DNA of 9,400 bases from DAOVGU01 sp030637775 [NCBI: bacterium]. Its GTDB lineage: Bacteria; Ratteibacteria; UBA8468. This document shows, piece after piece, positions 3,388-8,972 of this stretch. The stretch spans positions 1 to 9,400 of the forward strand of contig DAOWFY010000075.1 of assembly GCA_030637775.1 (NCBI GenBank). Direction: 5' to 3'. How positions within the stretch are numbered: position 1 is the first letter of the stretch; every line of letters begins with the position of its first letter. A program made the position numbers and the translations under genes. The notes under the pieces are model-generated. The model did not search any database, had not been told where the DNA came from, and saw nothing but the letters and a program-made list of their open reading frames with translations.

Positions 3388-4000
3388 TACCAAAGATGAT
3401 CAGGATAGCCCCGCAAAGGTAGCGAAAGATCTTAAGAGCTTTAGGTGACCTTATTAACTTAGAGGGAAGGGCAGAGGCGAGGGTTCCTAAAAGCAATAAG
3501 GGGGAGAAAAAGGTCCCGATTCCAAAGGAGAAAGCATACAATAGCCCTTCAAAGGCGTTTTTTGCGATGCAGCCAATATAGGTAAAAATGGCAATGAGGG
3601 GAGCACAGGGGGAAAGTCCGATGAGAAGACCCAGCAGGAGAATGCTTCTGCTGCTCTTTTTCTCAAGATGATGTTTTAAGATCCGGCAGAGAGGTTTTTG
3701 AGAACTTCTGAAAAAAATCTCCATTCCGATAATAATTATAAAGATTGCGGTTAAAAAATAGATTACTTGCGAAGAGAAAAAATGGTCGATGGTGCGGAAG
3801 GTGATCGTTATTAAAAGACCCAGAAGGGCTACCGCTAAAAGTCTGGCTAAAGAAAAGATAACGGTTATCTTCAGACCGCTCTGCCAGTTGGTTTTGGTTC
3901 CAGCAATATAGGGCAGGATGATGGGACCGCAAAAGAGAAGGCAGGGTCCCCAGCCCATAAGAAGACCGGCCATCAACAGCTTGGTTAAATCCGCAGCCAT
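3344..4000 (-). CDS. CcdA/DsbD-like (DsbD_2 / TauE-SafE type) integral membrane protein
   Basis: A 218-aa hydrophobic protein with about six membrane segments in two similar halves. The first half starts with GWGPCLLFCGP (residues 16-26) and the second with GLSPCAP (128-134). One proline-cysteine pair per half (C20, C132) is the hallmark of CcdA and the central domain of DsbD. Those proteins pass electrons from cytoplasmic thioredoxin across the membrane to periplasmic thiol proteins, such as those of cytochrome c maturation. The family is often annotated as sulfite exporter TauE/SafE, and this sequence does not separate the two readings. ATG at 4000 shares a base with the stop of the upstream UroD-family relic (TAATG), with a GGAAG ribosome site nearby, so expression probably depends on read-through of that relic. 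No thioredoxin or cytochrome gene is adjacent. The 3' end overlaps the convergent GT4 gene by 44 bases. Confidence 0.78.
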   Translation of the reverse strand: MAADLTKLLMAGLLMGWGPCLLFCGPIILPYIAGTKTNWQSGLKITVIFSLARLLAVALLGLLITITFRTIDHFFSSQVIYFLTAIFIIIIGMEIFFRSSQKPLCRILKHHLEKKSSRSILLLGLLIGLSPCAPLIAIFTYIGCIAKNAFEGLLYAFSFGIGTFFSPLLLLGTLASALPSKLIRSPKALKIFRYLCGAILIIFGINLFLRGLKVLSFP

Positions 4001-4538
4001 TATTTTCTTCCTGCCTCGTACATCGCAATGATATTCTCTGTGGGGATATCTGGCTGCAGATTATGACTGGGAGCCAAGATAAAGCCCCCATCCTTTCCCA
4101 AGGTTTCGATGCGCGATTTCACTTCCTTCTTCACCTCTTCTGCCGTACCTACGGGCAAGGTCTTCTGGACATCGATGGAACCATGAAAGCAAATATCCTT
4201 GCCGAATTCCCTCTTTAATTCTTCTGGCGCCATTCCTTTTGCTCTGGTTTGAATCAGATTTAGAATATCAAGACCAATCTCAATAAAGTCCGGGATAAAT
4301 TCCCTGATAGTCAAAAGGCTCTATCTCGGGCCAGGGGTGGTTCTCTATTTTCTGCGTTCTTTACCTCTGCCAATGGCGATTCAACTACCTCTAAGTAACT
4401 ACCTTTCCTCCAAGCGATCTTTCTTCTCTTCACTCCCCAGATATCTTTATAGGTTCCATCCGGCAACTTTTGCTGACGATCAGGTTCTTTATGGCTTAAA
4501 GAAAAAAGGATTCTTTCCTTGGAATTTTTTTCTTCCAT
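4000..4538 (-). pseudogene. Decayed UroD-family (uroporphyrinogen decarboxylase-like methyltransferase) gene
   Basis: Two fragments of one family lie head to tail. The N-terminal piece (4538 down to about 4320) begins with KERILFSLSHKEPDR, then LPDGTYKDIWGVKRR and YLEVVESPLAEV. Reading the next bases in another frame gives NHPWPEIEPFDY, the expected continuation, so there is a frameshift near 4340. The C-terminal piece (about 4310 to 4000) reads REFIPDFIEIGLDILN, then LIQTRAKGM, LKREFGKD, HGSIDVQKTLP and SHNLQPDIPTENI. It ends the way UroD/MtaA/MtbA-like proteins do. Family members are about 340-380 aa; here roughly 170 central residues are gone, and tens more seem lost between PDR and LPDGT. 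The intact family includes heme UroD and corrinoid-linked methyltransferases; the HGSIDVQ and HNLQPD style favours the latter. The short open frames at 4000-4314 (TTG start) and 4311-4538 should not be taken as two real genes. The stop is coupled to the following membrane-protein gene. Confidence 0.85.
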
Positions 4539-7205: not shown

Positions 7206-8129
7206 ATGGCAAATTTAAAGGAATTATCGGAAAGGAAGGAACTACTTGTTGGAGGACATCGACTCTGTCCAGGGTGCGCTGCGGGCATCATTGCCCGGCA
7301 GGTCCTTCTGGCAGCAAAGGAGCCAGTAGTGGTAGTAACCTCTACCGGCTGCCTGGAGGTTGCTACTACTATTTTCCCTTACTCCGCCTGGAAGGTTCCC
7401 TGGTTCCATAATGCCTTTGAGAATGCTGCCAGTACTATCAGCGGAATAGAGGCGGCTTATAGAAGTTTAAAGAGAAAAGGTAAGATTGATAAAGAGATCA
7501 GGTTTATTGCCTTTGGCGGAGATGGTGGCACCTATGATATTGGTCTGCAGGCTCTTTCCGGAGCGGTAGAAAGAGGACATCGATTTCTTTATATCTGCTA
7601 CAATAATCAAGCCTATATGAATACCGGAATCCAGCGTTCTTCCGCCACTCCAAAAGGAGCCAGCACCACCACCGCCCCAGCAGGAACGGTGATTCCGGGA
7701 AAAATCCAGTTTCGTAAAGATTTAACTAGGATTATGGTTGCCCATCAGATTCCTTATGCCGCGACGGCAACGGCAGGTAAATGGAACGATCTGATAACTA
7801 AGGTAGAGAAGGCTTTAGCTACCGATGGCCCCAGTTTCATGGACATCCTTTCTTCCTGTCGGCTTGGTTGGGGACATCCTCCAGAGCAAACCCTAACCAT
7901 TGGCAGACTTGCGGCAGATACCTGTTTCTGGCCCTTATATGAAGTGGTTGCGGGAGAATACCATCTTACCTATAAGCCAAAGAAAAAAAGACCAGTTACC
8001 GAATGGCTAAAAACGCAGGCCCGTTTTAAACATCTCTTTAAACCGGAGAACAAGGGCTTAATAGATACCATCCAGAATTATGTTGATGAGCAGTGGCAAA
8101 AACTTCTCAAACTTTGTGGAGAAGAATAA
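7206..8129 (+). CDS. porB: 2-oxoacid (pyruvate):ferredoxin oxidoreductase, beta subunit
   Basis: The thiamine-diphosphate-binding beta chain, partner of the alpha chain encoded just upstream. The four cysteines that bind the [4Fe-4S] cluster next to the cofactor are all visible: LCPGC (C21, C24), STGC (C49) and SSCRLGW (C218). The ThDP/Mg2+ motif is GGDGGTYDIG (104-113) with YNNQAYMNTG (132-141). PWFHNAFENAAS (65-76) and SSATPKGASTTTAPAG (145-160) are standard PorB segments. At 307 aa it has normal length and ends in a basic/helical tail. An AAGGAG ribosome site lies between porA and ATG 7206. No sign of damage is seen, unlike the gene that follows 12 bases downstream. Confidence 0.95.
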   Translation: MANLKELSERKELLVGGHRLCPGCAAGIIARQVLLAAKEPVVVVTSTGCLEVATTIFPYSAWKVPWFHNAFENAASTISGIEAAYRSLKRKGKIDKEIRFIAFGGDGGTYDIGLQALSGAVERGHRFLYICYNNQAYMNTGIQRSSATPKGASTTTAPAGTVIPGKIQFRKDLTRIMVAHQIPYAATATAGKWNDLITKVEKALATDGPSFMDILSSCRLGWGHPPEQTLTIGRLAADTCFWPLYEVVAGEYHLTYKPKKKRPVTEWLKTQARFKHLFKPENKGLIDTIQNYVDEQWQKLLKLCGEE

Positions 8130-8141
8130 GCGGTCAAATAG

Positions 8142-8566
8142 ATGATGAACTCCTTATTGATTGGAGCAATTACACTTCTTCTCTTATTTTTAAGTTATAG
8201 ATTTTATGGGAGAATTGCCGAAAGATTATGGCAGATAAGCCCGGAAAGGAAAACGCCGGCAATAGAGAAAAAGGATGGGGTAGATTATATTCCGGCTAAA
8301 AACTGGCTGATTCTCTTTGGTCATCAATTATCTTCAGCCTCTATCTCTTAAGTAAAAACAGACCAGTTTTCTATACCTTGATCCCCGCTCTTTTTATGTT
8401 GGCTACTACCATTGCTGCTCTTCTCTATCAGGCAAATAATTTCTTCCGTTCTGAACAATTACTTTTAGGCACCGTTGCCACTATTCTTCTTGTTCTCTCT
8501 GCCTTCGTTATTGTAGAAAGTAGTAAAATCATCAGAAAGAGACTTTCATCCTCTCCCCAAATATAG
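8142..8566 (+). pseudogene. cstA: Remnant of a CstA-family carbon-starvation/pyruvate transporter
   Basis: Two ends of one family with the middle missing. The first piece (8142 to about 8325) is a membrane helix followed by RFYGRIAERLW, RKTPAIEKKDGVDYIPAKNW and LILFGHQ. This is the CstA N-terminus, where FGHH and the long transmembrane core should follow. In a different frame from about 8327, and with no stop between, runs IIFSLYLLSKNRPVFYT, then LIPALFMLATTIAALLYQA and a last helix ending at the TAG at 8564-8566. That is the CstA C-terminus. Intact members have about 480-700 residues, so more than 300 are lost and the join shifts the frame. CstA and its relative BtsT import pyruvate or peptides, so an intact ancestor next to porAB would have coupled pyruvate uptake to its oxidation. 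The frames at 8142-8351 and 8378-8566 are not independent genes. Confidence 0.82.
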
Positions 8567-8580: not shown

Positions 8581-8895
8581 TCCCCGGTAGCTCAATGGTA
8601 GAGCGTTCGGCTGTGGTTAGCAGCGCTCAGCAGTAATGCTGAGATGAAAAGTGGGTGAATTCAGGAAAGCCTAACCTTACCTTTAGCGTAAGTACGGTAA
8701 TCCTGAGCCAAGTTAGCCGATTTTAAGGCGGCTAAAAGGTGCAGAGACTAAAGCTGACGAATAGAATAATGCTTATTAGCGCCCACCTCCAGTACATAGA
8801 TTTGTGTATTGGATGATGAGATAGTCCATGCCTTATAGAAATATAAGGGAGTTTTTGTAACCGAAATGTCGTAGGTTCGAGCCCTACCCGGGGAG
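8581..8895 (+). tRNA. tRNA-Asn(GUU), interrupted in the anticodon by a group I intron
   Basis: Exons are 8581-8614 and 8858-8895; joined they give a 72-nt cloverleaf. The acceptor stem TCCCCGG pairs fully with CCGGGGA (8888-8894), leaving G as the discriminator. The D arm is GCTC-AATGGTA-GAGC (8590-8604). The anticodon stem TTCGG (8606-8610) pairs with CCGAA (8861-8865) across the intron. The variable loop is ATGTC, and the T arm is GTAGG-TTCGAGC-CCTAC (8871-8887). Splicing at U8614/U8858 gives the loop CTGTTAA, anticodon GTT, within the GGCTGTTAACC context normal for bacterial asparagine tRNAs. The intron lies between anticodon bases 35 and 36. CCA is not encoded. Reading straight through the first exon as CTGTG would suggest a GTG histidine anticodon, but the intron's own pairings exclude that. 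Confidence 0.93.
8615..8857 (+). ncRNA. Group I self-splicing intron (243 nt, no ORF)
   Basis: The full core can be drawn. P1: exon GCTGU (8610-8614) with GCAGC (8620-8624), U-G at the 5' splice site. P10: GGTTA (8615-8619) with exon TAACC (8858-8862). P2: 8626-8632/8637-8643 with a GTAA tetraloop. P3: GTGGGT (8651-8656)/GCCCAC (8781-8786). P4: TTCAGG (8660-8665)/CCTGAG (8702-8707). P5: near 8669-8673/8693-8698, extended by CTTAC/GTAAG. P6: CC/GG (8708-8709/8738-8739), extended by TTAGCCG/CGGCTAA. P7: GACTA (8746-8750)/TAGTC (8822-8826). P8: CCAGTACA (8789-8796)/TGTATTGG (8805-8812). P9: CCTTATA (8831-8837)/TATAAGG (8842-8848) with a GAAA loop. The intron ends in G8857. L2 and L9 tetraloops suit the usual docking onto P8 and P5. 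An extra stem (about 8753-8780) sits between P7 and P3'. There is no homing endonuclease, so the intron depends on vertical inheritance or on transfer helped in trans. Confidence 0.93.
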
Positions 8896-8931: not shown

Positions 8932-8933
8932 GA

Positions 8934-8972
8934 GGGAGAAAATTCATTGTGAATTTTCTCCCTATTTTTTTT
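8934..8972 (+). terminator. Strong intrinsic terminator of the tRNA-Asn transcript
   Basis: A perfect 13-bp stem, GGGAGAAAATTCA (8934-8946) with TGAATTTTCTCCC (8950-8962), closed by a three-base loop and followed by TA and eight T. It ends the tRNA unit before the next promoter. Confidence 0.85.

What the first reader, a model, noticed from the sequence alone, without database searches (positions are those of the whole stretch)
8581..8895. tRNA-Asn(GUU) split inside its anticodon by a group I intron
The exons fold into a complete asparagine tRNA only after removing 243 nt between anticodon bases 35 and 36. The intron core is complete, and a perfect 5-bp P10 (GGTTA with TAACC) plus the P1 U-G pair fix both splice sites. 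Well-known bacterial group I tRNA introns sit in Leu(UAA), Arg(CCU), Ile(CAU) and initiator Met tRNAs. An Asn host is unfamiliar to me and may be undescribed. If this is the only tRNA-Asn gene, all asparagine decoding depends on splicing.
Basis: partly seen in the sequence, partly recalled or inferred. Interest (0 to 1): 0.85.

Follow-up and report, generated by a model that had tools for sequence, protein, structure and literature searches.

The report
tRNA-Asn gene split by self-splicing intron
The gene for the asparagine-carrying tRNA in this uncultured bacterium is interrupted inside its anticodon by what looks like a self-splicing RNA intron, and the same tRNA is cut at the same spot in other bacteria and in some large phages, which the reviews I could consult do not list.

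Summary
Rfam finds a complete group I intron at 8597-8848 (83.2 bits, E 1.7e-20). Removing 8615-8857 leaves a complete tRNA-Asn(GUU). Two relatives, one in the same genus, have that 73-nt tRNA uninterrupted and identical, which fixes both splice sites. Covariation across 22 related introns supports the core. No second tRNA-Asn was found in the window's genome, which is 83.5% complete.

What changes is the scope: this is not unique. In 386 sampled genomes, 18 of 54 group I intron places lie in tRNA-Asn(GUU) at the same 35|36 junction: 5 in the window's class, 13 in 13 other families. All 29 Asn introns compared contain the guide GCAGC once. Two carry an HNH-like ORF; one class member keeps a trace of it. 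Eleven IMG/VR viral contigs have the same split tRNA-Asn.

The review passages I read do not name Asn. A relevant 2025 preprint could not be opened, so priority is uncertain. Splicing itself is inferred.

The parts
8581..8614 (+). 5' exon of tRNA-Asn(GUU): acceptor 5' strand, D arm, anticodon stem 5' strand, loop bases 32-35 (CTGT)
   Evidence: ARAGORN on joined exons and with intron option; identical uninterrupted tRNA in G001 and G002
8615..8857 (+). group I intron, 243 nt; no ATG/GTG/TTG ORF of 60 aa or more inside
   Evidence: RF00028 83.2 bits, 8597-8848; empty sites in G001 and G002; ORF list
8610..8614 (+). P1 5' strand (exon GCTGT, ends in the U of the U-G pair)
   Evidence: sequence; pairing computed
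8615..8619 (+). P10 5' strand GGTTA, pairs with exon 2 TAACC 8858-8862; 5 bp only here and in G003
8620..8624 (+). internal guide sequence GCAGC; occurs once in each of the 29 Asn introns compared
8626..8643 (+). P2 hairpin (8626-8631 with 8638-8643)
   Evidence: 6 of 6 pairs show changes on both sides
8651..8655 (+). P3 5' strand, pairs with 8782-8786
   Evidence: 100% of cells paired, 3 of 5 pairs with changes on both sides
8661..8706 (+). P4/P5 domain (P4 8661-8665 with 8702-8706)
   Evidence: P4 99.1% of cells paired, nearly invariant
8746..8750 (+). P7 5' strand GACTA, pairs with 8822-8826 TAGTC (guanosine-binding helix: recalled family knowledge)
   Evidence: 97.3% of cells paired
8751..8780 (+). 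extra stretch between P7 5' strand and P3 3' strand; by position like P7.1/P7.2 of subgroup IA introns (recalled; inference)
   Evidence: alignment A1
8831..8848 (+). P9 hairpin, GAAA loop
   Evidence: 6 of 7 pairs with changes on both sides
8857..8857 (+). terminal G of the intron
   Evidence: sequence; boundary given by the empty sites
8858..8895 (+). 3' exon: loop bases 36-38 (TAA), anticodon stem 3' strand, T arm, acceptor 3' strand, G73; CCA not encoded (next bases CAA)
8933..8963 (+). terminator-like hairpin downstream of the tRNA gene
   Evidence: consensus scan, 2 found in the region against 0.6 in shuffles; not evidence of function
7206..8129 (+). neighbour gene, thiamine-pyrophosphate enzyme (oxidoreductase beta subunit); tRNA-Asn also follows it in some relatives
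   Evidence: Pfam TPP_enzyme_C; tRNA-Asn downstream of it in L031, L032, L041, L042

Best explanation
A group I ribozyme sits between U35 and U36 of the tRNA-Asn(GUU) gene. After transcription the exon end GCUGU pairs with the intron's GCAGC guide. A guanosine attacks after U35, the freed exon attacks after the terminal G (8857), and the exons join to give a tRNA identical in sequence to the uninterrupted tRNA of two close relatives. Because no other tRNA-Asn was found, asparagine decoding should depend on this reaction. The intron belongs to a widespread set of introns at this one tRNA-Asn site that I think spread by homing: two members carry an HNH-like ORF between exon 1 and the guide, one class member keeps a remnant of it, and the window's copy has none. 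Shown: gene structure, empty sites, conserved core, shared guide, distribution. Inferred: splicing, dependence, homing.
For: RF00028 full-length hit. Joined exons give tRNA-Asn. G001 (same genus; its locus is that of CSMAG_1143) and G002 (same family; CSMAG_1505) hold the same 73 nt uninterrupted. G003 (same family) has the intron at 92% identity, so it is not an assembly error. 25 of 41 pairs change on both sides; covariation score 0.494 against 0.171 shuffled and at most 0.136 slid. GCAGC guide in 29 of 29 Asn introns. HNH-like ORFs in L189 and L193; remnant CANCHREVHA in L041. An uninterrupted-tRNA-Asn pattern hit both positive controls (G001, G002) and 2 of 18 intron-bearing genomes, and neither of those 2 is an intact tRNA; the pattern would have seen the own joined exons of 15 of the 18.
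Against: No RNA data. The genome is a fragmented 83.5% complete assembly. The HNH hits are below Pfam's cut-off (18.5 and 18.6 against 21.4 bits). P8 is weak: its outer pair fails in 18 of 22 and two more in 9 of 22 each. The window's own intron has no endonuclease ORF; homing is judged from sporadic distribution and relatives' ORFs. One origin of the five introns in the phylum was not firmly rejected (AU p 0.058), so vertical descent with many losses remains possible.
Confidence: 0.92

Rival explanations
1. The interrupted gene is a dead copy: the intron no longer splices and a second, intact tRNA-Asn lies in the unassembled part of the genome.
For: Genome 83.5% complete in 177 contigs; no transcript data.
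Against: The joined exons are identical to the uninterrupted tRNA of G001 and G002; the core is intact and covarying; G001 and G002 show one tRNA-Asn place each; no intact uninterrupted copy was seen in more complete intron-bearing genomes such as G098, G165 and G135 (99-100% complete).
Confidence: 0.05
2. It is a copy of the classical cyanobacterial/proteobacterial tRNA intron (Leu(UAA), Arg, Ile) that moved to tRNA-Asn recently.
For: Same class of host gene and same loop.
Against: The three Leu and one Arg(CCU) introns fall apart from all 19 bacterial Asn introns (branch 99/100; 89/99, not starred and with a long-branch warning, in the first tree that also held L207 and L216); guide and junction differ.
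Confidence: 0.04
3. The intron is kept because it does something for the host, for example gating tRNA-Asn supply or shielding the anticodon of the precursor from anticodon nucleases.
For: Recurrent use of the same junction by bacteria and by viral contigs.
Against: Members of the same genus and family lack it; 5 of 35 genomes of the phylum have it, as expected for a nearly neutral mobile element. Not tested here.
Confidence: 0.08

Closest known systems
Group I introns of bacterial tRNA genes (tRNA-Leu(UAA), tRNA-fMet, tRNA-Ile(CAU), tRNA-Arg(CCU); Arg(CCU) recalled)
   Same: RF00028 core, insertion in the anticodon loop, U-G at the 5' site, terminal G, often without ORF
   Different: Host is tRNA-Asn(GUU), junction 35|36 (the Leu examples here 34|35, Arg(CCU) 36|37), guide GCAGC, separate place on the tree
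Group I introns with endonuclease ORFs in bacterial tRNA genes (PD-(D/E)XK type in a CAU tRNA, L207 here)
   Same: tRNA host with an ORF between exon and core
   Different: The two ORF-bearing Asn introns have an HNH-like ORF, not PDDEXK_5; the window's intron has none
Phage group I introns in protein genes
   Same: The viral Asn intron of L356 resembles phage introns, some annotated Intron_gpI or lying in polymerase genes; the window's intron shares its core with L356
   Different: Hausner 2014 places the phage introns known then in protein genes (PMC3984707, passages); those found here lie in viral tRNA-Asn
Nakagawa et al. 2025 preprint on a novel group I intron insertion site in tRNA genes of Patescibacteria
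   Same: Bacterial tRNA group I introns at a new site (title only)
   Different: Unknown: seen only as a title in the reference list of PMC12641178; not held

Membership tests
Group I intron (Rfam RF00028) | Covariance-model match above the curated cut-off | tested here: met
   83.2 bits against 50
Group I intron (Rfam RF00028) | Core helices P3, P4, P6, P7, P9 present and, where variable, kept by compensatory change | tested here: met
   91.3% of 888 cells paired, 25 of 41 pairs changed on both sides; P4 and P7 nearly invariant, P8 weak
Group I intron (Rfam RF00028) | Exon 1 ends in U pairing with G of the guide; intron ends in G | tested here: met
   boundaries given independently by empty sites
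Group I intron (Rfam RF00028) | Guanosine-initiated self-splicing | not testable with these tools
   needs in vitro transcription
Group I intron (Rfam RF00028) | Subgroup (IA, by extra helices between P7 and P3) | tested here: inconclusive
   the extra stretch is present in the window and in part of the Asn introns, absent in others; no subgroup models at hand; the criterion is recalled
Functional tRNA-Asn gene | Complete cloverleaf with GUU anticodon after splicing | tested here: met
   identical to the uninterrupted tRNA of G001 and G002
Functional tRNA-Asn gene | Only tRNA-Asn of the genome | tested here: inconclusive
   38 RF00005 hits, none read as Asn by ARAGORN; 15 CTGTTAAC sites, none in a tRNA; but the assembly is 83.5% complete
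Mobile (homing) group I intron | Homing endonuclease gene inside the intron | tested here: not met
   no ORF of 60 aa or more inside 8615-8857; HNH-like ORFs only in other genomes' Asn introns

The most novel reading that the evidence does not exclude
Junction 35|36 of tRNA-Asn(GUU) is a major, overlooked group I intron homing site shared by bacteria and large phages. It has been entered by at least two intron lineages, an HNH-type endonuclease has helped spread it, and phage tRNA clusters act as vehicles between bacteria. Standard tRNA finders miss or misname these genes, so many genomes appear to lack tRNA-Asn.
Probability: 0.5. Interest if true: 0.72.

Novelty: new variant of a known kind. 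Interest (0 to 1): 0.55.

Why it matters
ARAGORN without an intron option reports no tRNA here, and with introns allowed it named several of these split genes Thr, Tyr or Asp (against 40, 53), so genomes may look as if they lacked an essential tRNA. In the 386-genome sample tRNA-Asn was the commonest tRNA host I could assign (18 of 25 tRNA places; 13 of 20 outside the window's over-sampled class), which would change the usual list of hosts. The same junction in viral tRNA-Asn genes gives a testable route for tRNA intron spread.

Tried and rejected
P10 as the fixer of splice sites: rejected; it is not conserved. ARAGORN's anticodons of split genes: several wrong, replaced by my own splice search, which demands T (in one search T or C) before the intron and G at its end and so builds these in. 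Its first version crashed. Guides: one search took the longest pairing anywhere in the intron, which for some introns was another spot; I then chose the GCAGC next to P2. One search shows GCAGC occurs once per intron.

All were examined, 80 and 40; three passed the filter: L289 and L329 are split tRNA-Asn, L315 is not. A stricter pattern gave 12, of which two (L351, L356) are real. A third gave 15: ten split tRNA-Asn, five (L364, L365, L369, L370, L373) without core or tRNA. It missed L329, whose gap is longer than allowed, so eleven is a lower bound. Rfam: L329 62.0 bits, L289 36.4, under the cut-off of 50, L363 not found in two scans of its locus though it closely resembles L367 (62.3); so 9 of 11 pass. 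For L351 my search ranked a Thr reading first; I took Asn because exons and junction match the others.

Trees: one origin of all Asn introns is not rejected (AU p 0.10), nor one origin in the phylum (0.058), nor a clade of the 21 bacterial-type Asn introns without Tyr (0.38), so 'two lineages' rests on the tree alone. L207 and L216 were dropped from the second tree as long branches; L329 was found later and is in no tree or alignment. Of 54 intron places 14 have no assigned host.

BLAST of the window's locus against named phages gave one match, to exon 2 only; L351 none; L356 39 records, intron part only; L367 10; L366 one; L195 none in plasmids.

Full report
What is there. The window holds tRNA-Asn(GUU) in two pieces: exon 1 at 8581-8614, a 243-nt insert at 8615-8857 and exon 2 at 8858-8895. 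ARAGORN without introns finds no tRNA in the window. With introns allowed it finds tRNA-Asn(gtt) with a 243-nt intron, and on the joined exons a full cloverleaf. Rfam's only hit in the window at gathering score is Intron_gpI, 8597-8848, 83.2 bits, E 1.7e-20, over the whole model.

Boundaries. Among 99 genomes searched with the 316-nt locus, G001 (same genus) and G002 (same family) match positions 1-34 and 278-316 at 100% on adjoining bases, that is, with the intron exactly absent. G003 (same family) has the intron at 92%. Their uninterrupted tRNAs (G001, G002) are identical to the window's joined exons. By identical sequence, G001's locus is that of 'bacterium isolate CSMAG_1143' (L031) and G002's that of CSMAG_1505 (L032). 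G003's contig has the length of, and a 37-nt identical overlap with, L033, 'Candidatus Ratteibacteria' CG_4_9_14_3_um_filter_41_21. The window's bacterium is therefore of the same family as a named Ratteibacteria assembly; its own name was not given. In the 80 named loci fetched by the neighbouring gene, ARAGORN saw tRNA-Asn in 7, two of them (L041, L042) with an intron. An eighth, L051, misnamed Tyr, is a split tRNA-Asn. L041 and L042 are the loci of G030 and G014.

Structure. I aligned the guide-to-end part of 22 introns: 19 bacterial Asn, 2 viral Asn and 1 bacterial Tyr. The structure (P2-P9, 41 pairs) I wrote by hand from the window's sequence. 91.3% of 888 cells pair; 25 of 41 pairs change on both sides; the covariation score is 0.494 against 0.171 in shuffles (0 of 500 as high) and at most 0.136 when slid. 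P3 and P7 hold (100% and 97.3%). P8 is weak (59.1%), its outer pair failing in 18 of 22. The structure came from the window, which favours it on cells paired. The guide GCAGC occurs once in each of 29 Asn introns. A P10 of 5 bp is found only in the window and G003 and of 4 in three more; the other 14 bacterial and all 10 viral ones show 3 or fewer by an exact-match rule.

Is it the only tRNA-Asn? The genome gave 38 RF00005 hits, none of which ARAGORN reads as Asn. None of 15 CTGTTAAC sites lies in a tRNA. A pattern for uninterrupted tRNA-Asn was run on 21 genomes (18 with an Asn intron, G001, G002, and G318 with the Tyr intron). G001 and G002, the positive controls, were hit. Of the 18, G240 and G345 were hit: the first is no tRNA, the second a 3' half only, and ARAGORN finds no tRNA in either locus. 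The pattern would have recognised the genome's own joined exons in 15 of the 18. Dependence on splicing is likely but not proven; the window's genome is 83.5% complete.

How common. The window's class and phylum searches each held 35 genomes. Ten have an RF00028 hit at E 0.001 or better, at 18 places; five places, in G000, G003, G013, G014 and G030, are tRNA-Asn, and the loci of the other 13 contain 23S rRNA words. In a sample of 386 genomes, 42 have hits at E 1e-9 or better, at 54 places. My host assignment, from ARAGORN, 23S words and my splice search, is 18 tRNA-Asn, 7 other tRNA (Tyr, three Leu(UAA), Arg(CCU), one uncertain Arg, one CAU), 15 23S and 14 unassigned. The 13 Asn cases outside the class lie in 13 family codes among 351 genomes. 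In the phylum of G098 (45 genomes, 7 with hits) there are two Asn, four CAU and one unresolved. The sample is centred on the window's relatives and was scored with stricter filters, so these are not global rates.

Mobility. L189 (G221, 562 nt) and L193 (G302, 552 nt) carry open frames of 111 and 119 codons between exon 1 and the guide, with HNH-like motifs. Pfam HNH matches at E 0.0023 and 0.0021, below its cut-off. L041 (Omnitrophota DRTY-6.bins.152, the same locus as G030) keeps CANCHREVHA behind a stop at the same place. This looks like gain, decay and loss of a homing gene, an inference. On the tree the window and G003 pair (100/100) apart from the three other class members (96/89); holding the five together is not firmly rejected (AU p 0.058).

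Phages. Eleven IMG/VR contigs, of 10 to 470 kb, carry a split tRNA-Asn: ten of 15 stretches found with a P7-to-T-arm pattern, all at 35|36, and L329 from the first, looser pattern (ARAGORN). Nine of eleven pass the Rfam cut-off. PHROG scans of 20 proteins from the ten gave packaging or virion hits in L367 and L372 only, a phage-type sigma factor family in L366 and L368, other families in L351, L356, L363 and L371, and nothing in L289 and L362. For most, 'viral' thus rests on IMG/VR's own classification. Two viral introns (L351, L356) fall with the bacterial Asn introns; eight fall on the Leu/Arg side of a branch (99/100; 89/99), though one origin of all Asn introns is not rejected (p 0.10).

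Compared with what is known. The 2014 review of tRNA diversity puts bacterial tRNA group I introns in cyanobacteria and alpha- and beta-proteobacteria, mostly at 37/38 (PMC4033280, passages). Hausner 2014 says phage introns seen to date lie in protein genes (PMC3984707, passages). The tRNAscan-SE 2.0 paper says the program was not designed to detect group I introns and names fMet and Ile2 cases (PMC8450103, passages). A cyanobacterial survey adds Arg, Gly and Lys (PMC5733544, passages). A chloroplast survey reports no intron in tRNA-Asn (PMC9840617, passages). Archaeal group I introns were all in rRNA (PMC6125680, passages). Ten literature searches listed no paper whose title or abstract opening announces a bacterial tRNA-Asn intron; I opened passages of ten papers. 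One 2025 preprint title could not be opened. The mechanism is the standard one; the host tRNA, the junction and the sharing with viral tRNA genes are what is new to me.

Noticed in passing
L400 (Klebsiella phage Muenster MT708547.1), about 646-953 of the locus: A named jumbo phage has an unannotated tRNA with CAU anticodon split at 36|37 by a 231-nt group I intron (RF00028 104.1 bits), between annotated tRNA-Ser and tRNA-Asn genes.
   Followed up: partly
L399 (uncultured phage LR756501.1, 735,411 bp), about 592-881 of the locus: tRNA-Leu(UAA) appears split at 34|35 by a 205-nt group I-like insert; it did not appear at the Rfam cut-off.
   Followed up: partly
L190 (G318), 1477-1782: tRNA-Tyr(GUA) is split at the same 35|36 junction with a GCAG guide; Tyr and Asn share loop bases CUGU, so the intron may have jumped between them.
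   Followed up: partly
L389 (G345:C272:11786-11812): A 3' half of tRNA-Asn without the intron, matching the joined exons of that genome's split tRNA-Asn, with no 5' half: looks like an attachment-site remnant of an integrated element.
   Followed up: no
L002 (G000:C159:5397-5715): The window's genome has a second group I intron, in 23S rRNA (61.6 bits).
   Followed up: partly
L207 (G164): A tRNA with CAU anticodon holds a 648-nt group I intron with a PDDEXK_5 ORF (E 7e-50).
   Followed up: partly
window 4000-4538, minus strand: A 104-aa ORF matching only the end of uroporphyrinogen decarboxylase, next to a 75-aa ORF that was not scanned; possibly one broken gene.
   Followed up: no
window 8142-8566: A 69-aa ORF matching only the start of CstA (63 of 560 positions), then an unscanned 62-aa ORF just before the tRNA; possibly a degraded carbon starvation gene.
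   Followed up: no
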